DNA of 64,000 nucleotides, taken from positions 1 through 64,000 of the forward strand of contig JALHMT010000012.1 of NCBI GenBank assembly GCA_022843905.1, written 5' to 3'. This document shows positions 24,999 to 41,812 of the stretch, one piece after another; positions within the stretch are counted from its first letter, which is position 1; each line of letters starts with the position of its first letter. Source of the stretch: Rubrivivax sp. Its GTDB lineage: Bacteria; Pseudomonadota; Gammaproteobacteria; Burkholderiales; Burkholderiaceae_C. The position numbers and the translations under genes are program-made. The notes beneath the pieces are model-generated. The model made no database searches. It saw only the letters and a list, made by a program, of their open reading frames with translations, and was not told the origin of the DNA.

Positions 24999-26105
24999 TC
25001 AACGGATGAGGGGCAGCAGGCGTTCGGCACGGCCGATCATCTCGGCCTGGTGAGGCTGCAGTTCCTGCATACCCATGTGCTCGATGAGATGGCGGTAGGG
25101 GTCTTCAACCGGCGTACGGATGCCGGAAAGCTCTTCCAGCACCGCCAGTGCGCAAAACGGTGTGTAGGCGGGCATGAAGCCGCCTTCGGTGATGAACAGC
25201 AGCCGCCCACCGCACAGCGCCTGTGCGCTCTCCTTGAGCCGCTTCGTCATCCCGCGATAGGTTTCGCTGTATGCCATGGTGCGGCCCAGCGCCTCCAGAG
25301 CGTTGCCCGCGTAGCCGCAAGCCACCACGATCAATTCAGGCTTGAAGCGCTGCAGTGCCGGCAGCACGACGCGGTCGAAGGCGTGCAGATAGGCGCCATG
25401 ACCGGCGCCCGGCGGCAGCGGCACGTTGAGGTTCATGCCCAGGCCGGGCCCGGCGCCGTTCTCTTCGACAAATCCGCTGTCGGGCGGATAGAACTGAATC
25501 TGGTGCAACGACAGCGTCAACGTCAGCGGGTCTTCGTAGAACGCCTTCTGCGCGCCGTTGCCATGGTGCACGTCCCAGTCCACCAGGGCGATACGGCCCA
25601 GCCCGAACAACTGACGCAGGCGCTTGACCGCGACCACGCCGTTGTTGAGCATGCAAAAGCCACGGCCCTTGTCCGCTTCGGCATGGTGACCGGGCGGCCG
25701 GTTCAGCACGTAGGCATTGGCCACTTGGCCTTCGATGACCGCACGGCCGGCGGCAAGGCAGCCCCCGGTGGAAAGCGCGGCGATTTCGAAGCCCCCGGGG
25801 CCGAAGGGCGTCAGGTCGCCCGCGTCACCACCGCCGGCCTGGCTGAGCGCCGCAAGGCGGTCCAGGTACGCGGGCTCGTGGAACAGCAGCAGCTCGTCGC
25901 GCGTGGCAGAAGGCACATCGTCGATGGCGTGCAACTGCCGCTTCAGGCCGGACACGTCCAGCAGGTTCACGATGCGCCGTCTCGCTTCGGCGTTGTCCAC
26001 ATGCTCGCCCGGCTGGATGTAGCCGCCCGGCGGCAAGAAGGCCGCAGCTGCACCCGGGCTGTGCCACGCAAAACGTTCCTGCCAGACGAACCCGGTCTTG
26101 GCCAT
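24999..26105 (-). CDS. Class II histone-deacetylase-fold protein lacking a zinc ligand and the catalytic Tyr
   Basis: 368 residues. The arginase/deacetylase fold is clear, with RPPGHHAEA (H140-H141) and DWDVHHGNG (D178, H180). In bacterial HDAH enzymes the zinc ligands are Asp-His-Asp and the oxyanion residue is Tyr. Here the third ligand position is A266 (CGYAGNALEALGR) and the Tyr position is F310 (ITEGGFMPAY). Both substitutions are read directly from the DNA. Deacetylase activity is therefore doubtful, and a ligand-binding or altered catalytic role is possible. GGGAGC precedes the ATG. It is probably co-transcribed with the Bug receptor at 23994 and diverges from the LuxR regulator. Confidence 0.85.
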   Translation of the reverse strand: MAKTGFVWQERFAWHSPGAAAAFLPPGGYIQPGEHVDNAEARRRIVNLLDVSGLKRQLHAIDDVPSATRDELLLFHEPAYLDRLAALSQAGGGDAGDLTPFGPGGFEIAALSTGGCLAAGRAVIEGQVANAYVLNRPPGHHAEADKGRGFCMLNNGVVAVKRLRQLFGLGRIALVDWDVHHGNGAQKAFYEDPLTLTLSLHQIQFYPPDSGFVEENGAGPGLGMNLNVPLPPGAGHGAYLHAFDRVVLPALQRFKPELIVVACGYAGNALEALGRTMAYSETYRGMTKRLKESAQALCGGRLLFITEGGFMPAYTPFCALAVLEELSGIRTPVEDPYRHLIEHMGMQELQPHQAEMIGRAERLLPLIR

Positions 26106-26163
26106 CTCTTGCTCCCGCTGTGTCCCGTTGATCTCCACTGTAGGCACAGCGGCCTCGGCACAA

Positions 26164-26225
26164 CACCTCTGCATGGCCCCGTGCAAATGAACGGGGCCGG
26201 AGCGGAGCGAGAGATGCCAGAGGTG
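26164..26225. promoter_or_regulatory. Nested inverted repeats in divergent promoter region
   Basis: GGCCCCGT (26175-26182) and ACGGGGCC (26191-26198) form a perfect 8-bp inverted repeat with an 8-base centre. Outside it, CACCTCTGCAT (26164-26174) mirrors ATGCCAGAGGTG (26214-26225) with one extra base. The region is 125 bases long, between the deacetylase-fold gene and the LuxR regulator. It is a good candidate operator for that regulator. Confidence 0.5.
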
Positions 26226-26230
26226 ACACG

Positions 26231-27205
26231 ATGAGCCAGCGCGACCTGGCGCGCCTGAGCGAGATGCTGCAGGACGTTCACCAAGCAGCGCAGGGGGCCG
26301 ACTTCGAGGAGTTCCCGCATCGGGTGCTGCGGACATTGCAGCGCGGCTTGAAGGTCGACAAGGCATGGTGGGGCGTCAATGCCGATCGCAACATCCACAC
26401 CTCGGTCAGTCTGAACCTGCCGGCCGACCATCTGGCGCTGTGGCAGCGCACGAAGGAGTGGGACCCGATCGCCGAAGCAGCCATCGCGCAACCGGGCGTG
26501 ACAGCGATGTTCAACGCCGACCGCTTGCGCGCGACGCCGCGCAAAGCCCGCTGGCTGAAGCAATTCAGCATCGCGCATGTGCTCAGCACCACGTGGCCGC
26601 ATTCGGCGCTGAACATCACCTCGTTCCTCTCGGTCTATCGCACGTACCAGCCCTTTACGGAAGCCGATCGCCACTTCAAGCAACTGCTGATGCCGCACCT
26701 GGCGCTGGCTCAGGCCTCCAACTGGGCGCGCCACCTGCAAAGCCGGGCAGCGCTTTCGGGCGACCGTGAGCCATCCGCGCTGGCCATCGTCGATGCGTCG
26801 GGCTTGATGCATTGCGCCGATTTGCAAACTGCAGCGCTGCTGCGGGAAGAGTGGCCGGCTTGGCAGGGGCCCCGACTCGCCGCCCCGCTTTTGCCGCTGT
26901 TGCAGGCGCCACACCGCCCCTGGACAGGGCGCCGGATCCAGGCGCAAGCACGGCCCGAACCGCCCCAGCGCGGCCTGTGGTTGGTGCGCCTGACGCGTAT
27001 CAGTCGCGGCAGCCTGCTGTCGCCTCAAGAACTGGCCGTGGCATCAACCTATGCCCGCGGCCTGCATCACAAACAGGTGGCGCAGGTGCACGGCCTGGCA
27101 CCAGCCACAGTGCGCCACTACCTGCGCAACGTGTACACCAAGCTCGACATCAGCAACAAGGCCGCACTGGCGCGGCTGGCGGCGCAGGAGCAGTGGAAAG
27201 CGTGA
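26231..27205 (+). CDS. LuxR-family transcriptional regulator
   Basis: 324 residues. The C-terminal LuxR helix-turn-helix runs about 258-315 (LLSPQELAVASTYARGLHHKQVAQVHGL, then ATVRHYLRNVYTKLDISNKAAL). The N-terminal 200 residues have no receiver phosphorylation site and no obvious autoinducer-domain signature. It diverges from the deacetylase-fold and Bug receptor genes and is their likely regulator. The ATG has GAGGTGAC a few bases upstream. Confidence 0.85.
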   Translation: MSQRDLARLSEMLQDVHQAAQGADFEEFPHRVLRTLQRGLKVDKAWWGVNADRNIHTSVSLNLPADHLALWQRTKEWDPIAEAAIAQPGVTAMFNADRLRATPRKARWLKQFSIAHVLSTTWPHSALNITSFLSVYRTYQPFTEADRHFKQLLMPHLALAQASNWARHLQSRAALSGDREPSALAIVDASGLMHCADLQTAALLREEWPAWQGPRLAAPLLPLLQAPHRPWTGRRIQAQARPEPPQRGLWLVRLTRISRGSLLSPQELAVASTYARGLHHKQVAQVHGLAPATVRHYLRNVYTKLDISNKAALARLAAQEQWKA

Positions 27206-27578: not shown

Positions 27579-28067
27579 TCAGTCCTGCCGCAACAGCACC
27601 TCGCCTTCAATTTCTACCGGGATGCCAAACGGCAGTTCGGCCATGCCAACGGCGCTCCTGGCATGAGCGCCAACCTGCTGGCCGAACACTTCAAGGATCA
27701 GGTCGGTGAATCCGTTGATGACCGCGGGCTGGCGGTCGAAGCCGGGCGCCGAGTTGACCATGCCGAGGATGTGCACCCAGGCCTCGATCCGGTCCAGGCT
27801 GCCCAGCTCGCGCTTCAAGCTGCCCAGTATCGCCAGCGCCGTCAGCCGCGCTGCCGCGTAGCCCTGCTCCACGGTCACTTGGGCGCCCACCTTGCCCAAG
27901 GGCTGCGCCACGCTGCCGTCGGCCAGCGTGGGGCCATGGCCGGAGAAACGGGCCCGCTGGCCCAGCACACGGACCCAGGGAAAGGGCAAGGTGGTGCCCG
28001 GGGGCATCTTCAGCGGCTCGGGCAACACCAGGCCCAGTTGGGCGAGGCGGTCATCGATAGAAGGCAT
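27579..28067 (-). CDS. RidA/YjgF-family protein
   Basis: 162 residues. It shows RidA-like phrases such as GQRARFSGHGPTLADG, YAAARLTALAILGSLKREL, AWVHILGMVNSAPGF and AVGMAELPFGIPVEIE. Canonical RidA deaminates reactive enamine/imine intermediates made by PLP enzymes. This longer form belongs to the broader family in which the catalytic Arg is not always present, and activity is not assured. AAAAGGAGTTCC precedes the ATG. It follows the M81 gene by 66 bases on the same strand. Amine-metabolism neighbours fit an imine-clearing role. Confidence 0.85.
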   Translation of the reverse strand: MPSIDDRLAQLGLVLPEPLKMPPGTTLPFPWVRVLGQRARFSGHGPTLADGSVAQPLGKVGAQVTVEQGYAAARLTALAILGSLKRELGSLDRIEAWVHILGMVNSAPGFDRQPAVINGFTDLILEVFGQQVGAHARSAVGMAELPFGIPVEIEGEVLLRQD

Positions 28068-28133: not shown

Positions 28134-29615
28134 TCAGGAGCCCGTACCCGACCAGGGATCGGCCACTCGTGGCCAGAAGTTGGGGTCGCGGTGACGGAAG
28201 GGCAGCGCGGCGATGTCGGCCGTGAGCAAGCCAGGCGAATCGGCGTACAGCACTTCGCGAGCGATCGGTGCAAAGGCGGCATGGAAGTGCTGCATGGACT
28301 TCACCACCACGGCATGTTTGCGGTTCAGGTCGATGCCCAAGCCGGTGAACAGATCGGTGCCAATGACCTGCTGGCAGCGCGATGTCAGCACCAGGTCGAT
28401 GCCCTCGGCTGTGCTCACCCAGGCCGAGGCACCCAGGGGGCTTTTGGCGCCGAAGGCGGTCTGTTCGTGGTTGTCGGCCAGCGCCCGTACGGTGACGCGC
28501 AAGTCCACGGGGGAGCCTGAGGTCGGTCCGGATTTGCCCGCCACGCGCAGGGCCAGCGTCGAGCCCAGGCCCGCCTCGAAGCACAACTGCACGGCGCCTG
28601 GGTCCCACAAGCCGCCCAGTGCGACGTTGGGGATGCCGAGCGACAGGACAGCCTGCAGCGCGAAGCTGCTGTCGCCGCGGGCACCGCCGCCCGGGTTGTC
28701 TGCCATGTCGGCCACGACGATCGGTCCCGCCTCAGACAGGGGCGGCAGCTCAGCCACGCGCCGCATCGCGGCCGCCATGGCCAGCGGTGGCTGGTGCAGA
28801 GCATGACGCAGGGCCCAAAGGCGCTGGCCGAGTTCTGACGCCAGACGCGCGGCCAGGGCGTCGTTGCCGTCGGTGATCACCCAGAGACGGGCGCCAGCCT
28901 CTGGCACGTCGCCAAACGCGAAGCCGTGCGTGTGCGAGATCGAGAGCACGCCGTTGTGTCCTTCGAGGGCCTGCAGTTCCCGCACAAAGCTCTTCAGGGG
29001 CTCGCGCGTGGTGGGCCAACTGCCCGCCATGCGGCAGTCCCAGACCGCGGTGACGGGGCGGATGCGGCGCTCCGCGGTGTCGATGGCCAGTTGCGCCACT
29101 TCAGCGGCGCGCTCATCGATGTCGGTGTGCGGGTAGGCCTTGTACGCCACCATCAGCGTGGCATGCCGAAGCATGCTGCGCGTGACATGCCCGTGCAGGT
29201 CCAGCTCGACGCCAATGGGCACGTCGGGGCCGACGATGTCGCGCGCGCGTTCGAGCAGGTCGCCCTCGCAGTCCAGGCAGTCCTCGGCCGTCATGGCACC
29301 GTGCAGCATCAACATCACGGCCTGCACCGGCAGCGCGGCGCGCAAGTCGTTCAGCAATTCGTCGCGCAGTTGCTCGTACACCGGCTGCCGAATGGGGCCG
29401 AGTGGTACGGCGGCGGCGAACAGGCCTTCGACCACTTCCCATCCTCGCAACGAGACCACGCGGCGCACGGTTTCGATGGCGCTCAGGTAGCCGCCCGGGT
29501 CCACGCCGCTCGCCGCCCCGCGGCGGATGCCTTCGGATTCGAAGGCTCCCAACCCGGTAGGGATCGGCGAGTAGGAGTTGTTCTCGGCCAGCAGGCCGGC
29601 CAGGAAGAGTTTCAT
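28134..29615 (-). CDS. M81-family (MlrC-like) metallopeptidase homologue
   Basis: 493 residues, the normal family length. The opening KLFLAGLLAENNSYSPIPT contains the conserved Glu, VELDLHGHV supplies the Asp-x-His metal pair, and DNPGGGARGDSS is the family signature. MlrC was named for cleaving linear microcystin products, but most members sit in catabolic clusters with unknown peptides or amides. It starts the minus-strand M81-RidA unit and diverges from the MFS operon, so it may share its control region, which holds the TTTCT-N5-GGAAA palindrome. Confidence 0.88.
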   Translation of the reverse strand: MKLFLAGLLAENNSYSPIPTGLGAFESEGIRRGAASGVDPGGYLSAIETVRRVVSLRGWEVVEGLFAAAVPLGPIRQPVYEQLRDELLNDLRAALPVQAVMLMLHGAMTAEDCLDCEGDLLERARDIVGPDVPIGVELDLHGHVTRSMLRHATLMVAYKAYPHTDIDERAAEVAQLAIDTAERRIRPVTAVWDCRMAGSWPTTREPLKSFVRELQALEGHNGVLSISHTHGFAFGDVPEAGARLWVITDGNDALAARLASELGQRLWALRHALHQPPLAMAAAMRRVAELPPLSEAGPIVVADMADNPGGGARGDSSFALQAVLSLGIPNVALGGLWDPGAVQLCFEAGLGSTLALRVAGKSGPTSGSPVDLRVTVRALADNHEQTAFGAKSPLGASAWVSTAEGIDLVLTSRCQQVIGTDLFTGLGIDLNRKHAVVVKSMQHFHAAFAPIAREVLYADSPGLLTADIAALPFRHRDPNFWPRVADPWSGTGS

Positions 29616-29677
29616 CGGGGGCGGGGCCAGTGGGGGCCAGTGGGCCCCATCGGGGGCCGGCGGCGACGCAGCGGTTT

Positions 29678-29726
29678 AGCTTGACCGTTCTTTGTCAATG
29701 TGTCAAGCTTGTTTCTGAAATGGAAA
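29678..29726. promoter_or_regulatory. Control region of the MFS operon: two inverted repeats
   Basis: AGCTTGAC (29678-29685) and GTCAAGCT (29702-29709) form a perfect 8-bp inverted repeat with a 16-base centre. TTTCT-GAAAT-GGAAA at 29712-29726 overlaps the proposed MFS start codon at 29720. The second element matches those at 38243-38257 and 38350-38364, so it is the proposed XRE-cupin operator. No Shine-Dalgarno is visible before the ATG. Confidence 0.5.
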
Positions 29727-31081
29727 ACGCAACAGAAACTCGCCCCTCGCCTTCGGCCGCCGCACCGGTGCCGCGGGGTGCAGCCGAGCCGCCGTGGCCA
29801 AGCGCCTCGGTGGCACAGGCGTTTGTCCTGGTGATGCTGGTGGCGGCGACGTTCTCGTTCGTGCACCGCTACGTGCCGTCCGTGCTGGTCGATCCCATCA
29901 AGCAGGAGATGGGCATCAGCGACCTGCAGTTCAGTTTGCTGCAGGGAACGGCCTTCGCGGTGCTCTACGGCGCGGCGTCGCTGGTGTGCGGGTTCCTGGC
30001 CGACCGTGTGCACCGCCGCAACCTGGTCGTGCTGGGCGTTGCGGTCTGGACGCTTGGCACGGTTCTCTTTGGCTTGTCCACCAGCTTCACGGGCTTGCTC
30101 GCCAGTCGTGCCATGGTGGGCCTGGGAGAGGCTGCGTTGGGGCCTGCCAGTGTTTCGATGCTGTGCGACTACTTCCGCCCTGAGCGGCGCGGCAGGGCCA
30201 TCGCGGTGTCGTTCTTCGGGGCCACGCTGGGCAGTGCATTGGCCTTTGCCGCGGGGGGGCACATGCTGGAAGCGGCGGCTGCCGGCCGCTACGCCGGCCT
30301 GCCCTGGGTGGGCGATCTCGCGCCCTGGCGCCAGGTGGTGGTGTTGATGGGTGTGAGCGGGTTTCTGCTGGTGCCCGCCATCCTTGCCTTTCCCGAACCG
30401 CAGCGCCGCGCCCAGGAGGTTGCCGAGCACGTGGGCAACCGGGCGCAGGAGCTGTGGGCCATGCGCGACCGCATCGTGCCCGTGGTGCTGGCGGGTGCCA
30501 CGGTGGCGCTGGCCGACTTCGGCTTCAGCATCTGGGCCACCGCGCTGCTGACGCGTACGCACGGCTTCAGCGTGGCTGATGCCGGAACGGTGCTGGGCGT
30601 CTGCATGCTGGTTGCCGGGGTGGGCGGCGGCTGGCTTGGCGGTGTGCTGTGCGACCGCGCACACGTGCGCTCACCACTCACTGGACGCATCGACACGGTC
30701 GTGCGCGCAGCGATCGCGATGCTGTTGTCGGCCTGCCTGCTGCTTCTGCCCGGTGGTTGGGCCGCCGTCGCGGCCTTTGCCTGTTGGCAGGTGGCCGCCA
30801 ACGCGGCCTATGTCGGCTGCGCTTCGACCTTGCAGGACCAGGTCAGCGGACGCACCCGTGGCATTGCCGCGGCCTTGTCCTTGTGCATGTCGATCGGATT
30901 CGGCCTGGGCCTGGGCCCCACCTCGGTGGCCGCGCTGAACCAGCAGATCGGTGGTGGAGGCGACGCCTTGTCCTCCAGCCTGCTCATCGTGCTGCTCGCC
31001 GCAGGTTCCGCCACTCTGGCTTGCGCCTGGTTGCTGCGGCGTCGTCTGGCCCGGCGAGGGTTGTCGCCGGGCCATGCTTGA
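29720..31081 (+). CDS. Major facilitator superfamily transporter
   Basis: 453 residues with about twelve hydrophobic segments. The loop 2-3 motif reads GFLADRVHRRN, and helix 4-5 has RAMVGLGEAALGPASVSML, typical of spinster/organic-anion type MFS proteins. It is an inner-membrane importer or exporter. It is the first gene of a plus-strand series: MFS, flavoprotein, deacetylase, M20 amidohydrolase, XRE-cupin regulator. The start lacks a ribosome-binding site, so a leaderless or poorly translated message is possible; no other plausible start was found before the first helix. Confidence 0.87.
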   Translation: MENATETRPSPSAAAPVPRGAAEPPWPSASVAQAFVLVMLVAATFSFVHRYVPSVLVDPIKQEMGISDLQFSLLQGTAFAVLYGAASLVCGFLADRVHRRNLVVLGVAVWTLGTVLFGLSTSFTGLLASRAMVGLGEAALGPASVSMLCDYFRPERRGRAIAVSFFGATLGSALAFAAGGHMLEAAAAGRYAGLPWVGDLAPWRQVVVLMGVSGFLLVPAILAFPEPQRRAQEVAEHVGNRAQELWAMRDRIVPVVLAGATVALADFGFSIWATALLTRTHGFSVADAGTVLGVCMLVAGVGGGWLGGVLCDRAHVRSPLTGRIDTVVRAAIAMLLSACLLLLPGGWAAVAAFACWQVAANAAYVGCASTLQDQVSGRTRGIAAALSLCMSIGFGLGLGPTSVAALNQQIGGGGDALSSSLLIVLLAAGSATLACAWLLRRRLARRGLSPGHA

Positions 31082-31129
31082 TGCAAGGGCCCGAGGTGGG
31101 AGAGCAATGATGTCCTGGAGTGTGCAGCC

Positions 31130-32827
31130 GTGAAGCTTGAGTGCGATGTGTTGGTGGCCGGGTCGGGAGCCGCGGGCCTGGCGGCCGCGGTGACTGCGGC
31201 CCACCAGGGGCTGCGCGTGGTGGTGGTGGAGAAGGCGCCCGTGTTCGGTGGAACCACGTGCTTCTCTGCCGGCCTGGTGTGGATCCCCGGCAGCCGCCAG
31301 GCGCGCGCCGCCGGCATCGAAGACGACCCGGCGCTCGCGCTGCAGTACCTGCGCGGTGAGGGCGGTGCCTACACCGACGAAGCCAAGGCCGAGGCCTACG
31401 TGCGCCAGGCGGCTGAGATCTTTGCCTGGTTCGAAGACCACACGCATGTCAGCTACCACCTGTCTCCTCTGTGGCCCGACTACCACCAGGGTGTCGCAGG
31501 TGCCTCCCGCGGGGGCCGCTCGCTGGGGGCCAACCCGTTCGACGCGCGACGCCTGGGCGCACGCATGCGCGACCTGCGGCCCCCGCTGGCCAGCACCACC
31601 ATCTTCGGCGGCATGATGGTCGGCCGTGAGGATCTGATTCATTACTACGGCATGTCCAAATCCTGGCAGAGCCGTGGGGTGGTGGTGCGCAGGTTCTTGC
31701 GCTACGTGATGGACCGATTGGGTGGCCATGGGCGCAGCACTCGGCTTTCCAACGGCAACGCGCTGGCGGCCATGCTCGCGCTCAGTGCCTTCGAGCGGGG
31801 TGTCGATCTGCGGTTGAACACGCCCATCAAGCAATTGCTGGTGGAGGACGGTTGTGTCTCGGGCGCTCTGGTGCAGACGCCCGAAGGGCCGTGCGAGATT
31901 CGAGCGCGTGCGGGCGTCGTGCTCGCCTGCGGCGGGTTTCCGGCCAACCCTGAAATGCGCGCGCGCTACTACGCCCATGTCTCGGCGGGCAAGAACCACC
32001 GCACCGCTGCGCCGGCTGACAACACCGGCGACGCCTTGCAGTTGGCCAGCCAGGCCGGCGTGGCACTGAAGGACGCGCAGCATCACCCGGCGGCCTGGAC
32101 GCCGATGTCGCTGGTGCCGCAACCCGATGGCACTGATGTGCCCTTTCCGCACTACAACGATCGCGGCAAGGCGGGCTACATCGCAGTGGACCGGCGCGGG
32201 CGGCGCTTCATCAGCGAGTCGCTGTCGTATCACGACTTCGTGCCGGCCATGGTCCACGCCTGCCGAGACGATGCCGAGGTGTGCAGCTGGATCGTTTGTG
32301 ACAGTCGCGCCATCCGCCAGTATGGCCTAGGACGGGTGCCGCCCTGGCCCTTGCCCATCGGGTCCTTCATCGGCAGCGGCTACCTCAAGCGCGGGCAGAC
32401 GCTGGATGAACTGGCGCAGGCCTGTGGCATCGATGCCGCAGGCCTTCGTCAGACGGTGGCACGGCTGAACGCCGGCGCAGGGCGCGGCATCGACGAAGAG
32501 TTCAACAAGGGTGCTGATGTCTACGAACGCTTCAATGGCAGCCGTGGCCATGTTCCCAACCCGTGCGTGGCACCCATCGAGCAAGGGCCGTTCTACGCCG
32601 TGAAGGTGGTGCCGGGTGACATTGGCAGCTTCGTGGGTCTTCAGACCGACGAGCACGCCCGGGCGCTTGACGTGCAGGGCCGGCCCATCGAGGGCCTTTA
32701 CGTGGCAGGCAACGACGCTGCCAGTTTCATGGGCGGCACCTATCCCGGTGCCGGCATCACCCTGGGCCCGGCGATGATCTTCGGCCACATCGCGGCCCGG
32801 CACGCCCTGCAGCGTCTGCCAGCCTGA
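31130..32827 (+). CDS. FAD-dependent oxidoreductase (fumarate reductase/3-ketosteroid dehydrogenase type)
   Basis: 565 residues from a GTG start. The N-terminal dinucleotide fold reads VAGSGAAGLAAAVTAAHQ with the acidic strand end VVVEKAP. GGTTCFSAGLVWIP follows, and the C-terminal FAD-binding phrase is GNDAASFMGGTYPGAGITLGP. The class moves hydride to or from activated C-C bonds. It is closer in layout to 3-ketosteroid dehydrogenases and flavocytochrome c than to amine oxidases. It sits 48 bases after the MFS gene and 20 bases before the deacetylase gene, so it is probably part of the same operon. Confidence 0.87.
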   Translation: MKLECDVLVAGSGAAGLAAAVTAAHQGLRVVVVEKAPVFGGTTCFSAGLVWIPGSRQARAAGIEDDPALALQYLRGEGGAYTDEAKAEAYVRQAAEIFAWFEDHTHVSYHLSPLWPDYHQGVAGASRGGRSLGANPFDARRLGARMRDLRPPLASTTIFGGMMVGREDLIHYYGMSKSWQSRGVVVRRFLRYVMDRLGGHGRSTRLSNGNALAAMLALSAFERGVDLRLNTPIKQLLVEDGCVSGALVQTPEGPCEIRARAGVVLACGGFPANPEMRARYYAHVSAGKNHRTAAPADNTGDALQLASQAGVALKDAQHHPAAWTPMSLVPQPDGTDVPFPHYNDRGKAGYIAVDRRGRRFISESLSYHDFVPAMVHACRDDAEVCSWIVCDSRAIRQYGLGRVPPWPLPIGSFIGSGYLKRGQTLDELAQACGIDAAGLRQTVARLNAGAGRGIDEEFNKGADVYERFNGSRGHVPNPCVAPIEQGPFYAVKVVPGDIGSFVGLQTDEHARALDVQGRPIEGLYVAGNDAASFMGGTYPGAGITLGPAMIFGHIAARHALQRLPA

Positions 32828-32847
32828 GCATCGCGAGGACCACGCTC

Positions 32848-33893
32848 ATGCTCATCTTCCATGGCGCCGCCCACCGCTCGCACGACCCCAGCCCGGCCAT
32901 GGCGCGCGCAGGCCAGCCGCCGAATTTCGACACGCCCGATCGCGTGGATGTGGTGCTGGACGCTTTGCGGGCCCAAGGGGCGCACCGGCTGCAGTTGGCT
33001 GGCGACGCCGGCCTGGCACCCATCGCGCGGGTGCATCGGGCCGACTACCTGAACTTCCTGCAGACAGCCTGGGAACGCTGGCCGCGCGAGCGTGGTGCGG
33101 AGCTGGCCTTGCCCCAGTTCTGGCCAGGTCCTGGCAGCCCAGCCGGCGGTCCGCCCGCACGCTGCCCTGACTCTGTCGTGGCCCAGCTCGGCTGGTTTGC
33201 CGGTGATGCCATCGCGCCCTTGATGGCCGGCACATGGGCAGCGGCCTATGGGTCCGCCCAGGTGGCGCTGTCGGCCCAGCGCGCTGTGACCGAGGGCGTG
33301 CGCTCGGCGTTCGCCCTGTGCCGTCCGCCCGGGCACCACGCCGGCACTGCACGCCTGGCCGGCTATTGCTACTTGAACAACGCAGCGATCGCCGCGCAGG
33401 CCTTCATCGACGGCGGGCTGCGCCGCGTGGCGGTGTTCGATGTGGATTACCACCACGGCAACGGCACCCAGGAGATCTTCTACGAGCGAGCCGACGTGCT
33501 CGTCTGTTCCGTGCACGCCGACCCGGCCGAGGACTACCCGTTCTTCGTCGGGCGTGCCGATGAGATCGGTGCGGGGCCCGGTGAAGGCTTCAACCTGAAC
33601 TGCCCGCTGCCGGCCGGCAGCGACTGGCCGACCTGGCGCGCGGCGATGGAGACGTGCTGCCGTCGTATCGAGGCCTTTGCGCCTCAGGCCCTCGTGGTGT
33701 CGTTGGGCGTGGACACGCACCGTGACGACCCTTCCGGCGGCTTCAAGCTCGACAGCAGCCATTACGTCCTGATGGGCCGACGCATGGGCGAGCTGGGTCT
33801 GCCGACTCTGTTCGTCCTGGAAGGCGGCTACGGGCTCGAGGTATTGGGCGTGAACGTCACGAACGTAATGGCGGGCTTTGAGGGGGCAGCCTC

Positions 33894-33897
<4 letters not shown>
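32848..33897 (+). CDS. Acetylpolyamine amidohydrolase-like deacetylase
   Basis: 349 residues. The whole active site of the deacetylase superfamily is present: H163-H164 (RPPGHHAG), zinc ligands D200 and H202 (DVDYHHGNG) and D289 (LGVDTHRDDP), and catalytic Y328 (LEGGYGLEVL). Spacing matches acetylpolyamine amidohydrolase of Mycoplana with a constant offset of five, as I recall that enzyme. Expected reaction: hydrolysis of an acetyl or other acyl group from an amine such as acetylputrescine. GAGGA precedes the ATG. Its stop overlaps the next start as ATGA. Confidence 0.88.
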
Positions 33898-35084
<1,187 letters not shown>

Positions 35085-35151
35085 CACTGAGGCAACCGCA
35101 CCTTCAGGCGTGCCGACCGGCCCTTCCAGACCCCTTGACCCGACCACACAC

Positions 35152-35895
35152 ATGAGTGATTCCGAGCCTCAGCTCCACAACCTGCCCGCTCGCCCCGGGG
35201 CGGTGGTGCGGGCCGTGCGCGAGCAGCGCGGCTGGACATTGGCCGAAGTCAGCGAGCGCACGGGCTTGTCGGTTTCCACCCTTTCGAAGGTGGAAAACGA
35301 CAAGATGTCGCTCACCTATGACAAGCTCTCGCGCATCAGCAAGGGGCTGGCCATCGACATCGGGCAGCTCTTTGCCGCGGGCTCGGCCCCCAGCGGCGCA
35401 GCGCCTGCGCGGATGGCCGGCTTCTCAGGCCGGCGCAGCGTGTCCCGCAGCGGCGAGGGCAGCGTCATCGACACGCCCAACTACGGACACGTGTACCCGG
35501 CCACCGATCTCCTCAACAAGCAGATGGTGCCCATCTTCGGCCAACCGAAAGCGCGCACACTGGGGGAGTTCGGCGAACTGCTGCGCCACAGTGGTGAGGA
35601 ATTTTCGGTGGTGCTGGAAGGTGCAGTGACGTTCCACACCGAGCTCTATGCCCCGGTGCTGCTGCAGGCCGGCGACTCGGTGTACTTCGACAGCAGCATG
35701 GGGCATGCCTACCTGCGCGTGGGCGACGGGCCCTGCCGTGTGCTGACCGTGTGCTCCGACGGGCCATCGCTGGCGGCGGCCGGCTATCCGCCAGCCATGG
35801 CCGAGCCGCAGGTTGTACGGGCACCTGCACCGAAGGAAGTGACCGCACCCGCCCCGGCGAAGCCACCCCCAAAACCCAAGACTCGAAAACGCTGA
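35152..35895 (+). CDS. XRE-family regulator with C-terminal cupin
   Basis: 247 residues. An HTH_3 domain spans about 15-75 (VREQRGWTLAEVSERTGLSVSTLSKVEN) and a cupin beta-barrel about 115-205 (EEFSVVLEGAVTFHTELY, SVYFDSSMGHAYLRVG). The tail is Pro/Ala/Lys-rich. Regulators of this design, PuuR for example, often control amine or amino-acid catabolism and bind short palindromes. It ends the MFS operon and is the best candidate to recognise TTTCY-N5-GGAWA. A TTTCCACC/GGTGGAAA inverted repeat inside its own helix-turn-helix codons (35273-35296) may be coincidence. Confidence 0.88.
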   Translation: MSDSEPQLHNLPARPGAVVRAVREQRGWTLAEVSERTGLSVSTLSKVENDKMSLTYDKLSRISKGLAIDIGQLFAAGSAPSGAAPARMAGFSGRRSVSRSGEGSVIDTPNYGHVYPATDLLNKQMVPIFGQPKARTLGEFGELLRHSGEEFSVVLEGAVTFHTELYAPVLLQAGDSVYFDSSMGHAYLRVGDGPCRVLTVCSDGPSLAAAGYPPAMAEPQVVRAPAPKEVTAPAPAKPPPKPKTRKR

Positions 35896-35928
35896 TTCTC
35901 GCGGCGCGAACGCCAGCAGGCGCCGCTG

Positions 35929-36807
35929 CTACAGACAGACGGTGCCGCGCATCATCTCCACGCACTGGCCAGCAAGCCACACGCGCACGCCATCGTCGCC
36001 ACGTTGGGCGCCGGCATGCAGCACACTCGGGCGGCCGATCTCCGCACCCATCTGCATCACGATCCGGTTGCTCGGCGCACCATCCCGCTCCAGCAGCAGG
36101 CCAGCCAGCGCGGCCGTGGCGCTGCCGCAAGCGGGATCTTCGGTCACGCCATACAGCGGGCCGAAGACGCGCGATCGCAACTGGTCGCCGTCGCGGGCGT
36201 ACAGACACAGCATGAAGCGGCCCTGCGGCCCCAGCCAGCGGTCTGCCGCCGCCCGGAAAGCCGAGGCATCGGGCGCGGCGCGCGCCAGCACGTTGACCGA
36301 GACCTCGGCGCACACAGCGTCGAGGCCGACCGAGGCCACATCGGTGCGTCGGATGTCGCCCGCGTCCAGTTTGGCGCACGGCGCCAGGTCGGCCGCGCTG
36401 GGAGCGGCACCCAGCCTCAGCGCCTGAGGTGCCATCAAGCGGCAGATGCGCAACTCTCCGCCCTCGCGCTCCACGCCGATCTCCACCAGCCCGCTGCCGC
36501 CCTCGAAGGTCAGGCGGCCTTGGGTGTCGCGCCCCTGCGCCGCCAGCACCCAAGCGGTGCCGATGTTCGGGTGGCCAGCAAAGCCGATCTCGGCCGACGG
36601 CGTGAAGATGCGGACCTTGGCGGTGTGGCCAGAGTCATCGGGTGGCAGCACGAAGGTCGTCTCGCTGAGGTTGAACTCGCCGGCCAGGGCCTGCATCGTC
36701 GCAGTGTCCAGACCGCGGGCGTCGGCGAAGACGGCCAGCGGGTTGCCGCCGAATCGGCGGTCGGTGAACACGTCCAGGGTGACGAACTCGTAGGAACGGG
36801 CCATCAC
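35929..36807 (-). CDS. PhzF-family isomerase/epimerase-like protein
   Basis: 292 residues. Family marks are FTDRRFGGNPLAVF, the catalytic Glu in NLSETTFVLPP (E49), IFTPSAEIGFAGHPNIGTA and TEDPACGSATAAL. The fold is that of diaminopimelate epimerase. PhzF isomerises a phenazine precursor, but most members have unknown substrates. No phenazine genes are nearby. Its start overlaps the stop of the aminotransferase gene, with which it forms a coupled pair read from the promoter region at 38.2 kb. Confidence 0.87.
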   Translation of the reverse strand: MMARSYEFVTLDVFTDRRFGGNPLAVFADARGLDTATMQALAGEFNLSETTFVLPPDDSGHTAKVRIFTPSAEIGFAGHPNIGTAWVLAAQGRDTQGRLTFEGGSGLVEIGVEREGGELRICRLMAPQALRLGAAPSAADLAPCAKLDAGDIRRTDVASVGLDAVCAEVSVNVLARAAPDASAFRAAADRWLGPQGRFMLCLYARDGDQLRSRVFGPLYGVTEDPACGSATAALAGLLLERDGAPSNRIVMQMGAEIGRPSVLHAGAQRGDDGVRVWLAGQCVEMMRGTVCL

Positions 36808-38219
36808 GCGGCTCCCCGGCGCTGGTCCGCGCTCAGCATCGCCGTGGCACGTGCAATGGCCCGGTGCAGCATCTCGGCAATCTGGTCGGCATCGCTGCGC
36901 GTGAGCATGAGCGGGGGCGAGATGCCCACAATGTCGTTCACGGGCAGCGGCCTGGCCAGCAGCCCTTCTTCCATGGCCAGGCCTGCAACCTGGGCCGAAA
37001 ACTTCAGCGTAGCGTCAAGCCGCCGCCGCGGCGGACCCTCGGCCACGAACTCCACGGCCTGCAGCAGGCCGGCGCCGCGCACGTCACCCACGAGCGGGTT
37101 GGTGGCCAGGCGCTCGCGCAACTGCGCAAGCAGATAGCCGCCCACCTCGGCGGCGTTCTCGCAAAGCCCTTCTTCTTCGATGATGCGGATGTTCGCCAAG
37201 GCGGCGGCGGCGCCCAGGGGGTGCGCCGAGTAGGTGTAGCCGTGCGCAAAGAATCCGTGCGTCCGCGCGCCGTCCTGCAGCGCCTGCCAGACCTTGGGGC
37301 CGACCAGCGAGGCCGACAGCGGGGCGTAGCCACTGCTCAAGCCCTTGGCCAGCGTGATCAGGTCGGCCTCGATGCCATAGCCGTCGACGGCCAGCATGTG
37401 GCCTACGCGGCCGAAGGCGGTGATCACCTCGTCGGCGATCAGCAGCACGTCGTACTTGCGCAGCACGGCCTGGATGGCTTCCCAGTAGCCCGCCGGGGGC
37501 GGCAGGATGCCGCCGGAGCCGACGACGGGCTCGGCAATGAACGCGCCCACGGTGTCGGGGCCCTCGGCCAGGATGAGCCGTTCCAGTTCGTCGGCGCAGC
37601 GTTGCGAGAACGCGCGCGGGTCGGTCTCGGGCGCCCAGAAGGCGTCGGGCGCGAGCGTGTGCTTCGCCAGCGCAAAGGGCAGGTCGAAACCGCTGTGATA
37701 GTTCGGCAGCCCCGTCAGGCTGGCCGTCATCGTGGTGGCACCGTGGTAGCCGCGCTGGCGCGCGATGATCTTCTTCTTCTGGGGCTTTCCGATGACGTTG
37801 TGGTAGTACCAGACCAGCTTGATCTGCGTCTCGTTGGCGTCTGAACCCGACAGGCCAAAGAAGACGCGCTTCATGCGCCCGCCTGTGAGCGCGATCAGCT
37901 TCTCGGCCAGCACGATGGCTTTCGGGTGCGAGGCACCCGCGAAGATATGGTAGTAGGGCAGCTCGGCCGCCTGCTCGGCAATGGCGTCGACGATGGCTTG
38001 TCGGCCGTAACCCACATTGACGCAGTACATGCCCGACATGCCGTCGATGACCGAGCGTCCGTGGGCGTCGGTCACACGAATGCCCGATGCACTTTGCACG
38101 ATGCGCTGGCCCGGAACGCGGCCGGCCGCAAAGTCGTCGGCGCGGGTAAAGGGGTGCAGCAAGGAGTCGCGATCGCGCTGCTCCAGCGTCGGGGCCGCTG
38201 CGGGGCTGTCAAGGGCCAT
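36804..38219 (-). CDS. Class III omega-aminotransferase
   Basis: 471 residues. The PLP lysine is in LITLAKGLSSGYAPLSA, with YHGATTMTASLTG and LLIADEVITAFGR upstream. The N-terminal LLHPFTRADDF and MSGMYCVNVGYGRQ resemble beta-alanine/putrescine:pyruvate aminotransferases (SpuC-like). It would convert a terminal amine to an aldehyde with pyruvate as acceptor. TTTCC-GTTTT-GGAAA lies 24 bases upstream of the start, ahead of the CTCCTGGAGA ribosome-binding region. It is divergent from the TonB receptor. Confidence 0.88.
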   Translation of the reverse strand: MALDSPAAAPTLEQRDRDSLLHPFTRADDFAAGRVPGQRIVQSASGIRVTDAHGRSVIDGMSGMYCVNVGYGRQAIVDAIAEQAAELPYYHIFAGASHPKAIVLAEKLIALTGGRMKRVFFGLSGSDANETQIKLVWYYHNVIGKPQKKKIIARQRGYHGATTMTASLTGLPNYHSGFDLPFALAKHTLAPDAFWAPETDPRAFSQRCADELERLILAEGPDTVGAFIAEPVVGSGGILPPPAGYWEAIQAVLRKYDVLLIADEVITAFGRVGHMLAVDGYGIEADLITLAKGLSSGYAPLSASLVGPKVWQALQDGARTHGFFAHGYTYSAHPLGAAAALANIRIIEEEGLCENAAEVGGYLLAQLRERLATNPLVGDVRGAGLLQAVEFVAEGPPRRRLDATLKFSAQVAGLAMEEGLLARPLPVNDIVGISPPLMLTRSDADQIAEMLHRAIARATAMLSADQRRGAA

Positions 38220-38242
38220 GGTGGTCTCCAGGAGAAAAGTAG

Positions 38243-38257
38243 TTTCCGTTTTGGAAA
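38243..38257. promoter_or_regulatory. Candidate operator TTTCC-GTTTT-GGAAA
   Basis: A perfect 5+5 bp inverted repeat 24 bases upstream of the aminotransferase start. It is one of only three matches to TTTCY-N5-GGAWA found at promoters in the window. Confidence 0.55.
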
Positions 38258-38349
38258 TGTAGCGCCAGGCGACCTCACTTGTCCACTCTAGGCAAGGAGG
38301 CGCGATGGCGGAATCCCCGGCTCTGCAGGCACCGTGATTGCATCAGAGG

Positions 38350-38364
38350 TTTCCGCAATGGATA
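38350..38364. promoter_or_regulatory. Candidate operator TTTCC-GCAAT-GGATA with adjacent TTGACA
   Basis: Same spacing as the site at 38243 but with one mismatch in the right arm. TTGACA follows at 38370-38375 and could be the -35 box of the TonB receptor promoter; no consensus -10 box is visible. GAAAC also repeats directly at 38381 and 38394. Confidence 0.5.
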
Positions 38365-38427
38365 TTGTGTTGACATGATGGAAACTTTTCGCAGAAACTG
38401 TGTCACCTACTGGAAAGGATGGACTCC

Positions 38428-40635
38428 ATGACCCAGATCGTTCCCCGTCTACGTCATTCCCCGGTGGTGCTTGCCATCGCCATGCTGGCCCCCTGGGCGG
38501 CGCACGCCCAGCAAAGTGCTCCCGCGCAAACGGGCTCGGGCAGCGGGCCAGCGGCGTCGGACTCCGCCAGCACACAGAAGATTGAAGTCACTGCGCTGAA
38601 GACACGCCAGAGCCTGCAAGAGGTGCCCGCATCGGTCACTGCACTGACGGCTGACGACCTGGCTCGCTCCGGCCTCGTGAACGCGGCCGACCTTCAGCAA
38701 AAGGTGCCTGGCCTGAGCCTGTCCTCCGGTGGGCGCGAGACCAATCTGGCCATCCGCGGCGTGTCCAACAACGTGCGCAGCATCGGCGCCGATCCGTCCA
38801 ATGCCGTGCACATCGACGGCGTCTACCTGCCTCGTTCCAGCATGGTGCTGACCGAGCTGTTCGACCTCCAGCGTGTCGAGGTGTTGAAGGGCCCGGAGGG
38901 CACGTTGTACGGCCGCAATGCGACGGGTGGCGCCATCAACGTAGTGACGCGCGCGCCCACCGCCCAACCCGGAGCGGAAGGCTTCCTGGGCTTCGGCTCG
39001 CTGGGCCTGCGGCGCACGCAGCTGGCGGCGGGTGGCGGCACGGACGACTTGTCCGGTCGCATCGCGGTGGCGTATACGAAGGACGACGGCTACACGCGCA
39101 ACCTGAGCACGGGTACTGGGCTGGACACGAACGATTTCAAGGCTTTCCGCGGCAAGCTGCGTGTTGCGCTGGGCAAGACGGCTGATCTCACCCTGCTGGC
39201 CCAGGCGTCCGACGACAAGGGCACGATCGGCTACGGCGTGTCCACCGACACATCGATCACCGGGCCGCTGTACCCGTACTCGCTGGGTGATCCCGACTAC
39301 CGCCTGACTGCGGCGGACCACCGCACCGACGCCCGACACATCCGCCTCGATTCGCCGGTCAGCAGCTCGCGCAAGACCCGCGTCCTCGCAGCCACCGTGA
39401 ACTGGGACCTCGGCTCGGTCGGGTTCAAGTCCATCACCGGACTCACGAGCTTCAAGAGCGGCGACCAGAACGACGTCGACTGGACGGGCGCCAAGCTGGA
39501 AACCCAGGACACCACCACGGACGTCAAGTCCACTTCGCAGGAGTTCCAGCTCTACAGCCAAACGGACGGGCCCCTGGAGTGGACGGCGGGCATCTTCCTC
39601 TACCGCGACAAGGGCACCGAGACGCTGGACTGGCGGCTGCACGGGCCCGTCAACTGCGGCGCGCCGGGCAGCTGCGACTTCGCACGCCAGACGGTGAAGA
39701 GCAGCGGTCGCTCAGAAGCGGTCTTCGGCCAGCTGACTTACCGCTTCACGCGCGAGTGGTCTGGCCTGCTGGGTGCGCGCTACAGCCGGGACACCAAGGA
39801 CGGCGATGCGACCAACCGGCGGTCGGGGGCGAACTTCACTGGCGACGTCAGCTTCTCGTCGTTCACGCCGAAGGCGCAACTGCAATGGACACCCTCGAAG
39901 GGGCTGATGGCGTACGCCGGTGTGTCCAAGGGCTTCAAGAGCGGCGGCTTCAACTTTGGTCGCGCCGGGATCGAGAAGTTCGAGCCCGAAAGCATCGTGG
40001 CGACCGAGGTCGGCGTGCGCAGCACCTTGATGGGCGGGGCGTTGTCGCTGAACGCCTCCGCCTTCAACTACGACTACAAGGACCTGCAGTTGCGCACGGC
40101 TGTGCTGGACGCGGTGTCCGGCAACTTCGTGGTCAGCGTCAACAACGCCTCCAAAGCCAAGGTTCAGGGCCTCGAGCTGGGCGCCGATCTGGCGCTGGGT
40201 GCCGGCTTCAGTGGTGGCCTGGCGGCCGCCTACATTGACAGTGAACTGCAGAACTACGTGTCTCCATCGACTCGCCGCGACCTCAGCGGACTGCCGTTGC
40301 CGCTGACGCCCAAGAGCAGTGGCTCCGTCTGGCTGGATCACCGCACCTCGGTGGCCGGGGGGCAGCTGCGCAGCCACGTCGAGTACAACTACCGCAGCAG
40401 CGTGATCTTCCCGTTGACGCTGGACCAGGCGAACAACAAGGGAGAGGCGTATGGCCTGGTCAATGCCTCGCTGCGCTGGACCGCCCCGAAGGACGCCTGG
40501 TACCTGCAGGCCGGCGTGCTGAACGCCACCGACAAGCTTTATCGCACGATGCGCGCCGACTACATTTTCGGCGGTGTGGTGGAGAGCTTCGGTGCGCCGC
40601 GCACCTACGAGATCCGGCTCGGCTTCAAGTACTGA
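38428..40635 (+). CDS. TonB-dependent outer-membrane receptor
   Basis: 735 residues from the ATG at 38428, which has AAGGA eight bases upstream; an ATG at 38419 has no spacing for a ribosome site. A signal peptide ends near AHAQQ. The plug domain contains QEVPASVTALTADDL and VEVLKGPEGTLYGRNATGGAINV. The barrel ends in EIRLGFKY with the terminal aromatic expected for outer-membrane insertion. It carries two FKSG phrases about 170 residues apart, encoded by near-identical GCTTCAAGAGCGGC, relevant to the deleted paralogue at 48.7 kb. The cargo is unknown; iron complexes, sugars and aromatic compounds are all known for the family. Confidence 0.93.
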   Translation: MTQIVPRLRHSPVVLAIAMLAPWAAHAQQSAPAQTGSGSGPAASDSASTQKIEVTALKTRQSLQEVPASVTALTADDLARSGLVNAADLQQKVPGLSLSSGGRETNLAIRGVSNNVRSIGADPSNAVHIDGVYLPRSSMVLTELFDLQRVEVLKGPEGTLYGRNATGGAINVVTRAPTAQPGAEGFLGFGSLGLRRTQLAAGGGTDDLSGRIAVAYTKDDGYTRNLSTGTGLDTNDFKAFRGKLRVALGKTADLTLLAQASDDKGTIGYGVSTDTSITGPLYPYSLGDPDYRLTAADHRTDARHIRLDSPVSSSRKTRVLAATVNWDLGSVGFKSITGLTSFKSGDQNDVDWTGAKLETQDTTTDVKSTSQEFQLYSQTDGPLEWTAGIFLYRDKGTETLDWRLHGPVNCGAPGSCDFARQTVKSSGRSEAVFGQLTYRFTREWSGLLGARYSRDTKDGDATNRRSGANFTGDVSFSSFTPKAQLQWTPSKGLMAYAGVSKGFKSGGFNFGRAGIEKFEPESIVATEVGVRSTLMGGALSLNASAFNYDYKDLQLRTAVLDAVSGNFVVSVNNASKAKVQGLELGADLALGAGFSGGLAAAYIDSELQNYVSPSTRRDLSGLPLPLTPKSSGSVWLDHRTSVAGGQLRSHVEYNYRSSVIFPLTLDQANNKGEAYGLVNASLRWTAPKDAWYLQAGVLNATDKLYRTMRADYIFGGVVESFGAPRTYEIRLGFKY

Positions 40636-40672: not shown

Positions 40673-41812
40673 ATGACTGCGCAGCTTGACAGCTCGACAG
40701 GACAGATGGGACTGATGGGATGCGAGTTCGTGGACGTCGCGTCGCGCACTCCCGAAGTCCCGCATGGCATCCAGCTCGATGCGGTGCCGGTGGATGCCGA
40801 ACAGGTGCGTGCGCTGCCGGGCGACCACATGCAACGCCTGCTGCCCCCTCCCCGGACGGTGCTGATGAATGCCTATACGGCGGGCGACACGAGCTGGCTG
40901 CGGATCGACTCCACTTACCCTGAGCAGATGAGGCAGCGCTTGGCGCTGCTGGCGACACGGCGCGCCTGGGTGGTCGACCGGCTGGATTCAGAAGCGGTCT
41001 TGCTGGCCGAGACCGAGTTGCGCGACCGCGTCGTCCAGTGGCTCACCACCGAACATCCGCGCGCATTCACCCAGCAAGGCGATCACGTCACTTGCCACCT
41101 GACCGGGGTGGTCGTCGACGTCGGGCCGCATGGCGCGCAGCCGATGGTGGCCGTGGCGGCGCTGGCCACCGAGGACTTCCTGCTCATGCTGCCGGCAGAA
41201 GCGGACGCGCAGGGCCAGGTCAGCTATCGCCTGATGAGCGGCGCACTGCTGTTTCCGAACGGCTGGTCGTTGCGCAGTTGCTTCGACCGGCCTGACCCGG
41301 GGCCGCTGGACGAGCAACGGCGCGCGCAGTGGGAACAGGACCGCCAGCTGAGCCGGGACCGGGCGCGGCTGGGCCGGTCGACGCGGGAGATCCACCAGGG
41401 CGCGGTGCCGCAATACGAGGCTCACCTCGCAACATCGGTGGACCGTGCGTTTCATGCCATGCGGCCTGAACGGGTGGTCTGGAGGCGAAACTGGGGCCCC
41501 CACCTGTCGCCCAGGCTGTTCCGTCATGCCGATGCGCTGGACGTCGTCCCACCGATGACGTCTGAACGGCTGCTGGAGCAAGGCTTCATCCGCTCCGAGC
41601 ACCAGACGCTGGTGAAGCTGCCGCGCACTGCTGCGATCGCGTTCGGCCTGAAGACCTACCTCTGGCCCATGCGGGACATGTTGGCGGACCCTGACGTCCG
41701 CAGCGCACTTGACGTCGCCGCACAGCGGACGTGGCCAGAGACGCGCGAGTACATGCAGGGTCGCCACGAAGTCCTGATGGCCTTGCTGAGTACCCCGACG
41801 CAAGCCCGATAA
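40673..41812 (+). CDS. Haem-dependent oxidative N-demethylase family protein (DUF3445)
   Basis: 379 residues. The C-terminal [19 protein letters not shown] and [22 protein letters not shown] resemble the conserved end of DUF3445, whose characterised member is a haem-b oxidative N-demethylase with a PAS-like fold. The expected reaction is removal of a methyl group from a secondary or tertiary amine with oxygen, releasing formaldehyde. It follows the TonB receptor by 37 bases. The TAA stop overlaps sequence left from another gene (41811-41900), so the 3' side is a rearrangement point. Confidence 0.75.

What the first reader, a model, noticed from the sequence alone, without database searches (positions are those of the whole stretch)
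29712..38364. Three TTTCY-N5-GGAWA palindromes mark a candidate XRE-cupin regulon
TTTCT-GAAAT-GGAAA (29712-29726, over the MFS start), TTTCC-GTTTT-GGAAA (38243-38257, before the aminotransferase) and TTTCC-GCAAT-GGATA (38350-38364, before the TonB receptor) share arms and spacing. Scanning by eye, the only other match is inside the XRE gene coding region itself. The XRE-cupin gene lies between these promoters. If correct, one regulator links outer-membrane uptake, inner-membrane transport, deacylation, oxidation and transamination.
Basis: partly seen in the sequence, partly recalled or inferred. Interest (0 to 1): 0.7.

Follow-up and report, generated by a model that had tools for sequence, protein, structure and literature searches.

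The report
Paired operators of an XRE-cupin regulon
A gene cluster that seems to take up and break down an unknown amide- or peptide-like compound carries matching DNA switches in front of its operons, and comparison with other bacteria indicates that a regulator encoded inside the cluster (a kind already known from Pseudomonas) binds them, often as pairs two DNA turns apart.

Summary
In detail: TTTCY-N5-GGAWA lies at 29712, 38243 and 38350 and nowhere else in the window. The whole genome has 9 such places, 3 of them here. The sites persist, with variation, in orthologous clusters. A matrix trained only on the window and close orthologs finds 45 sites beside 19 distant XRE-cupin homologs, against a mean of 5.9 for 300 permuted controls, none of which reaches 45.

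A second, weaker 15-mer lies 20 bp from the sites at 29712 and 38350; partners recur at 19-21 bp for 13 of 29 strong sites. The composite site occurs 8 times in 81 same-genus genomes, always in this cluster.

Best reading: the 247-residue XRE-cupin protein is a local, probably autoregulating repressor of four operons (MFS to XRE, M81-RidA, aminotransferase-PhzF, TonB-HODM). It works like PsdR or DbuR with its own operator code. Homologs sit beside D-amino-acid/peptide enzymes, suggesting a peptide-like inducer. Binding, repression and inducer are untested. New member of a known kind.

The parts
35152..35895 (+). XRE-cupin regulator, 247 aa (HTH_3 residues 19-71, Cupin_2 residues 141-201)
   Evidence: Pfam HTH_3 4.5e-13 and Cupin_2 4.8e-12; translation
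29712..29726 (+). strong operator TTTCTGAAATGGAAA between M81 and MFS
   Evidence: (24.2 bits); kept in orthologs
29692..29706 (+). weak partner operator TTGTCAATGTGTCAA, 20 bp from 29712; read on the minus strand it starts with TTGACA (29706-29701), a candidate -35 box for M81
   Evidence: 7.0 bits; partner present in 6 of 6 M81/MFS promoters, window included
38243..38257 (+). strong palindromic operator TTTCCGTTTTGGAAA, overlapping the end of the predicted -10 of the aminotransferase promoter
   Evidence: (25.3 bits)
38256..38285 (-). predicted aminotransferase promoter, TGGACA-N18-TACATT
   Evidence: the only promoter-like site found in 38200-38440
38350..38364 (+). strong operator TTTCCGCAATGGATA before the TonB receptor
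   Evidence: (19.3 bits)
38370..38384 (+). weak partner operator TTGACATGATGGAAA, 20 bp from 38350; it starts with the candidate -35 box TTGACA (38370-38375)
   Evidence: 13.7 bits; present in 7 of 8 TonB promoters, window included
35282..35296 (+). look-alike TTTCGAAGGTGGAAA inside the XRE gene: codons for LSKVEN, not counted as an operator
29720..31081 (+). MFS transporter, first gene of the apparent operon that ends with XRE; exact start uncertain
   Evidence: MFS_1 4.4e-39; in L038 and L085 the aligned codon is TTG followed by an in-frame stop
31130..32827 (+). FAD-dependent oxidoreductase, 3-ketosteroid-dehydrogenase-like
   Evidence: no NCBIfam cut-off reached among the 25 families shown
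32848..33897 (+). histone-deacetylase-fold hydrolase
33894..35084 (+). M20 amidohydrolase
   Evidence: TIGR01891 345.7 bits, cut-off 153.75
35929..36807 (-). PhzF-family isomerase
   Evidence: TIGR00654 167 bits, cut-off 76.2
36804..38219 (-). class III aminotransferase
38419..40635 (+). TonB-dependent receptor
40676..41812 (+). haem-dependent oxidative N-demethylase-like protein (HODM), right end of the conserved module
   Evidence: PF11927 9.4e-49; found after TonB in L038, L039, L040, L044, L081, absent in L041
28134..29615 (-). M81 metallopeptidase (MlrC-like)
27579..28067 (-). RidA/YjgF-family protein, left end of the conserved module

Best explanation
The XRE-cupin protein binds TTTCC-N5-GGAAA-type sites as a dimer. 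At the M81/MFS and TonB promoters a second dimer binds a weaker site two DNA turns (20 bp) away on the same face. Together these sites shut off four operons that run from two bidirectional promoter regions: MFS-FAD-HDAC-M20-XRE, M81-RidA, aminotransferase-PhzF and TonB-HODM. Because XRE appears to be the last gene of the MFS operon, it would also limit its own expression. A compound from the pathway, probably a peptide-like or N-acylated amine, would bind the cupin domain and release the DNA. Shown here: the sites, their conservation, the recurring 19-21 bp spacing, the overlap with one predicted promoter and the link with the regulator subfamily. Inferred: operon limits, binding, cooperativity, repression and inducer.
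For: Window sites are the top 3 of all window positions for a matrix that excludes them. Their arms, and those of the weak partners, average 0.90-0.98 for the major base in ortholog alignments, the rest of the intergenic sequence 0.67-0.68. A matrix from the window and close orthologs alone finds 45 sites in 19 distant loci, against a mean of 5.9 (max 31) in 300 permuted matrices, and 21 sites with a partner against 0.32 (max 13). 13 of 29 strong sites have a partner at 19-21 bp; other 3-wide bins average 0.30, maximum 3. Of 26 strong sites outside the window, 19 lie before XRE itself, M81/MFS, S12, TonB, DAO, RidA or POT genes. The composite site is found 8 times in 81 same-genus genomes, only in this cluster. 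The aminotransferase operator overlaps the end of the predicted -10. XRE-cupin proteins of P. aeruginosa are local repressors that mostly bind core promoters (PMC7901475, section 7 read).
Against: No binding or expression data were found for this protein. In L041 the TonB site is lost, and in L040, L042 and L044 the left arm of other sites is TTGCY. 4 of 20 representative loci have no site of 14 bits or more outside the XRE gene, and 16 of 29 strong sites have no partner at the 5-bit threshold, the aminotransferase site among them. A 4-base spacer form is as common as the 5-base one in the pooled distant loci (24 against 22 hits). At M81/MFS the spacers are as conserved as the arms (0.93-0.97), so conservation there does not single out the arms. 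At the TonB and M81 promoters the strong site lies upstream of the candidate -35 box, which would also fit activation. No promoter passed the scan at 29600-29760 or for TonB.
Confidence: 0.8

Rival explanations
1. Same regulator and sites, but it activates (or activates some promoters and represses others): the strong site just upstream of the candidate -35 box at TonB and M81 would help recruit RNA polymerase.
For: Strong site, five bases, then TTGAC is kept at 7 of 8 TonB and 6 of 6 M81 promoters, window included. An XRE-family activator, NceR, is reported (PMC10470515: title in the listing, passages; DbuR's authors count it among XRE-cupin regulators).
Against: The order of strong and weak site against the gene start is not kept: in L047 the stronger site is the one nearer the M81 start, in the window the weaker. 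At the aminotransferase promoter the site overlaps the predicted -10. The P. aeruginosa paper found all targets repressed (PMC7901475).
Confidence: 0.15
2. The sites belong to a different regulator encoded elsewhere, and the XRE gene is a passenger.
For: Not every XRE homolog locus has a strong site (16 of 20 representatives do), and binding is untested.
Against: The sites follow the XRE subfamily into loci of other classes whose other genes differ, often lying before the XRE gene itself. They are rarer beside XRE homologs under 45% identity (12 sites in 32 loci against 32 in 20; L061 stands in both groups).
Confidence: 0.04
3. The palindromes are chance matches.
For: The pattern was chosen to fit the three sites, and 6 other places in the genome match it.
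Against: Conservation, the independent-matrix test and the 19-21 bp spacing. None of the 6 other genome places has a partner site.
Confidence: 0.01

Closest known systems
PsdR of Pseudomonas aeruginosa
   Same: XRE-cupin protein; 5-5-5 operator (TTAAG-N5-CTTAA; PMC10965056, passages); acts on neighbouring metallo-dipeptidase and small-peptide transport genes
   Different: Arms TTTCC/GGAAA instead of TTAAG/CTTAA; partner sites 20 bp away; TonB, M81, aminotransferase and other genes instead of mdpA and dppA3
DbuR of Pseudomonas putida
   Same: XRE-cupin repressor beside a D-amino-acid oxidase, a Rid2 protein and a transporter; 44 bp protected, including a 20-bp palindrome and the predicted -10 (PMC12724383, passages)
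   Different: Palindrome AATTCTCATATATTAGAATT; the window module's FAD enzyme matches best the FAD_binding_2 family, with DAO only as a weaker partial match
PauR/PuuR polyamine regulators
   Same: HTH plus cupin; PauR's targets include gabT2 and davD-davT (PMC7901475, passages)
   Different: PuuR model not met (48.8 bits, cut-off 211); PauR has targets at 12 genome locations
mlr microcystin-degradation genes
   Same: An M81 (MlrC-like) hydrolase with a transporter gene; [quoted passage not shown]
   Different: MlrC model not met (332 bits, cut-off 999); Pfam shows no S12 hydrolase in the module, the family I recall for MlrB

Membership tests
XRE-cupin local transcription repressors | N-terminal XRE/HTH domain and C-terminal cupin domain | tested here: met
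XRE-cupin local transcription repressors | palindromic operator-like sites before the neighbouring operons | tested here: met
XRE-cupin local transcription repressors | sites lie in core promoters | tested here: inconclusive
   met for the aminotransferase; no promoter passed the scan at M81/MFS or for TonB
XRE-cupin local transcription repressors | sites next to the regulator gene | tested here: met
   3 of 9 genome places lie in the regulator's own cluster; composite site only in the cluster
XRE-cupin local transcription repressors | protein binds the sites and represses | not testable with these tools
   needs gel shift and deletion
XRE-cupin local transcription repressors | release by a pathway metabolite | not testable with these tools
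   inducer unknown
PuuR (NF007408) | score above curated cut-off | tested here: not met
   48.8 against 211 bits
PsdR | operator TTAAG-N5-CTTAA | tested here: not met
   arms here are TTTCC/GGAAA; PsdR site from PMC10965056
Microcystinase MlrC (NF041767), for the M81 gene | score above curated cut-off | tested here: not met
   332 against 999 bits

The most novel reading that the evidence does not exclude
This XRE-cupin subfamily, found in alpha-, beta- and gammaproteobacteria, has its own operator code: often two 15-bp sites two DNA turns apart, the second sometimes built around a -35 box. It controls mobile modules that take up (TonB, MFS/POT) and dismantle peptides holding D- or modified amino acids. 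The window's module is a freshwater version for an N-methylated or N-acylated peptide-like compound, perhaps of cyanobacterial origin.
Probability: 0.3. Interest if true: 0.7.

Novelty: new member of a known kind. Interest (0 to 1): 0.5.

Why it matters
It gives a regulator subfamily for which I found no experimental report a precise, cheap-to-test binding code and names its likely targets. The code also outlines the catabolic module it would control, which narrows the search for the substrate. In the passages and sections read here I saw no report of paired operators two turns apart for XRE-cupin proteins, and a search for four spellings of the motif found no paper.

Tried and rejected
Chance: rejected. 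The XRE-coding match as an autoregulatory site: rejected, since it is the LSKVEN codon run; none of the 14 best window scores lies in the 67 bp before XRE (alignment). The other 6 genome places as further regulon members: 2 lie in likely coding sequence (L006, L008); none has a partner. L007 scores 22.2 bits, 4 bp before a gene that looks LysR-type by eye, and stays open. The site at 57459 (15.1 bits, above the shuffled maximum) has no partner. Co-variation of the TTGCY arm with HTH residues: the recognition helix STLSKVEN is unchanged, so nothing was concluded. The permuted-arm test ranks TTTCC-N5 only 2nd of 60 in the distant loci, behind TTTCC-N4. Partner-gene counts lean upward for the 45-69% group because several queries were taken from it, and that group holds near-duplicates (L056-L058, L059/L060). 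The 20 representatives are the window, 18 of the 21 loci of that group (L056, L057, L060 dropped as near-duplicates) and L061, which rounds to 45% and so also stands in the under-45% group. The 19 distant loci are these without the window. A Fisher value is not used: promoters travel with the cluster, so carriers are not independent. The structure job was not finished at any collecting call (67-83) and was interrupted; I did not hand it in again, so no fold comparison was made. Paper searches; two listed nothing, and 47 and 71 nothing that looked relevant beyond DbuR.
Full report
Observation. The three 15-mers exist as described. In the own genome the pattern has 9 places, 3 of them within this 8.7-kb stretch; strand matches are 12, against 7 for the reversed control. 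Only 38243 is a perfect palindrome in its arms. The extra match in the XRE gene is TTTCGAAGGTGGAAA at 35282 (one mismatch), the codons of the HTH residues LSKVEN. Look-alikes lie in the XRE coding region of seven other loci, in five of them (L038, L059, L095, L096, L126) near the same codons, in L064 and L088 elsewhere in the gene.

The cluster. Pfam gives HTH_3 plus Cupin_2 for the regulator, and MFS, FAD oxidoreductase, histone-deacetylase-fold hydrolase, M20 amidohydrolase, PhzF, class III aminotransferase, TonB receptor, M81 peptidase and RidA for the others. A haem-dependent N-demethylase-like gene follows TonB. From RidA (27579) to this gene (41812) the order is kept in the close orthologs as far as their contigs reach, except that L041 has 5 kb after TonB without the N-demethylase gene. 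That gene was found in 5 of the 9 close loci examined (L038, L039, L040, L044, L081); L043 and L085 do not reach that side and L042 ends inside TonB. The genes outside the module differ in the three loci listed (L038, L039, L044). MFS, FAD, HDAC, M20 and XRE lie close together on the plus strand (gaps of 48, 20 and 67 bp, one overlap of 4 bp), so XRE is probably the last gene of the MFS operon. No site was seen directly before XRE in the window.

Conservation. The others carry one change, mostly TTGCY for the left arm or AGATA for the right; L041 has lost the TonB site. Arms average 0.90-0.98 for the major base, the rest of the intergenic sequence 0.67-0.68; the spacers of the two M81/MFS sites are as conserved as their arms (0.93-0.97), those of the other three less (0.60-0.80). 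Several named loci and G genomes are the same contigs by length (for example L039 and G102), so the ids overstate the number of genomes; searches use the window and named loci only, and L043 and L081 are two contigs of one MAG.

Distant homologs. One search fetched 59 XRE loci. Sites with at most one mismatch appear beside homologs of 48-61% identity, for instance in the M81/MFS intergenic region of L045, L047 and L049 and twice in G034. In a test of 60 arm and spacer combinations, TTTCC-N5 ranks 1st in 9 close loci (8 hits in 5 loci) and 2nd in 53 distant loci (22 hits in 15 loci; mean of all patterns 6.25), behind TTTCC-N4 (24 hits in 17). L086, at 39% identity, has two exact 4-base forms before XRE. 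A matrix trained on the window and close orthologs alone finds 45 sites of at least 12 bits in 19 distant loci; 300 matrices with permuted columns give 5.9 on average (sd 4.9) and at most 31. A second matrix, which includes some distant sites, gives 32 sites of at least 14 bits in 20 representative loci against 3 in shuffled sequence; 27 of the 32 are noncoding or near a start, a class that makes up 15% of the bases. It gives 12 sites (5 shuffled) in 32 loci of homologs under 45% identity; L061 stands in both groups. Of the 26 strong sites outside the window, 19 lie before XRE, M81/MFS, S12, TonB, DAO, RidA or POT genes, 4 before other genes only, and 3 had no start within the range examined.

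The tandem. Scoring the window with a matrix free of window sites shows two weaker sites, 29692 (7.0 bits) and 38370 (13.7), each 20 bp from a strong one. Across 29 strong sites in 16 of 20 loci, 13 have a partner of at least 5 bits at 19-21 bp; 43 other 3-wide bins (overlapping) average 0.30 and reach at most 3. In the independent-matrix test 21 of the 45 sites have such a partner (at least 4 bits), against 0.32 (maximum 13) in controls. Strong site, five bases, weak site starting TTGAC is kept at 7 of 8 TonB and 6 of 6 M81 promoters. The composite TTTCC-N5-RRAWA-N5-TTGAC occurs 8 times in 81 same-genus genomes, all at these two promoters and in 5 of the 6 genomes that hold the ortholog at 81% identity or more; the sixth, G129, has GGACA at its TonB site. 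The reversed control matches once. TTGACA in the weak site is a candidate -35 box; no matching -10 passed the promoter scan there, so this is read from the sequence. The aminotransferase site has no partner and overlaps the end of a predicted -10.

Mechanism. XRE-cupin proteins of P. aeruginosa repress neighbouring genes, mostly from core promoters, and are thought to bind as dimers (PMC7901475, section 7 and passages). PsdR uses TTAAG-N5-CTTAA, the same 5-5-5 layout (PMC10965056, passages). DbuR protects 44 bp, with a 20-bp palindrome and the predicted -10, before a D-amino-acid oxidase, Rid2 and transporter operon (PMC12724383, passages). By this analogy the protein here most likely represses its own operon and three neighbours. 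The order of strong and weak sites differs between the window and L047, which fits blocking of the promoter better than activation, but activation is not excluded.

What the module may do. Among 21 homolog loci of 45-69% identity, neighbours within 7 kb include S12 hydrolases in 14, DAO in 11, TonB in 11, M81 in 9, MFS in 6, ornithine-cyclodeaminase-like in 4, D-threonine-aldolase-like in 4, RidA in 3, POT in 3 and M55 D-aminopeptidase in 2. Among 32 loci under 45% the numbers are TonB 9, S12 8, POT 8, DAO 2, RidA 1 and M81 0 (with the biases told under Tried and rejected; Pfam names). This points to peptides with D- or modified amino acids; S12 hydrolases have many other substrates (recalled), so the point is not proven. 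The window module shares M81, RidA, TonB and MFS but has an aminotransferase, PhzF, HDAC-like, M20, FAD and N-demethylase genes instead of S12 and DAO, so its substrate is a guess. The M81 gene does not reach the microcystinase cut-off.

Verdict. A real, conserved operator set; a well-supported regulon; a new member of the known XRE-cupin kind with a frequent tandem operator that I did not see described in the passages read. Binding, direction of control and inducer need the bench.

Noticed in passing
window 29681-29698: TTGAC-N8-GTCAA inverted repeat, conserved between M81 and MFS in most rows and overlapping the weak operator; it may be back-to-back -35 boxes or a site for another protein.
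   Followed up: partly
window 29720; L038 and L085 at the aligned codon: The MFS start ATG lies inside the operator. In L038 and L085 the codon is TTG followed by an in-frame stop, so the true start is probably further downstream or differs by species.
   Followed up: partly
window 40676-41812: A haem-dependent oxidative N-demethylase-like gene follows the TonB receptor here and in five close loci, hinting at an N-methylated substrate.
   Followed up: partly
L007 1501-1515 (G000:C63:21897-21911): A 22.2-bit single site 4 bp before a gene that looks LysR-type by eye, elsewhere in the same genome, no partner; possible extra target or chance.
   Followed up: partly
L058 3013-4170, 12276-13931, 15966-17204, 17368-18201: In Paraburkholderia polaris the regulator homolog sits among S12 hydrolases, an alanine-racemase-N/D-serine-dehydratase-domain gene, DAO and an M55 D-aminopeptidase: a likely D-peptide utilisation locus.
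   Followed up: partly
L041 (MAG named Candidatus Planktophila lacus): A contig filed under what I recall as an actinobacterium carries this cluster at 84-93% identity; probably mis-binned.
   Followed up: no
window 24999-26366: A second histone-deacetylase-fold gene lies just outside the module; six close loci show only a 34-38% match, at the place of their own module HDAC gene, so it is not part of the conserved block.
   Followed up: partly
window 57459-57473: TTTCTTATATGTCAA, 15.1 bits, the fourth-best score in the window; no partner site and no link to the cluster seen.
   Followed up: partly
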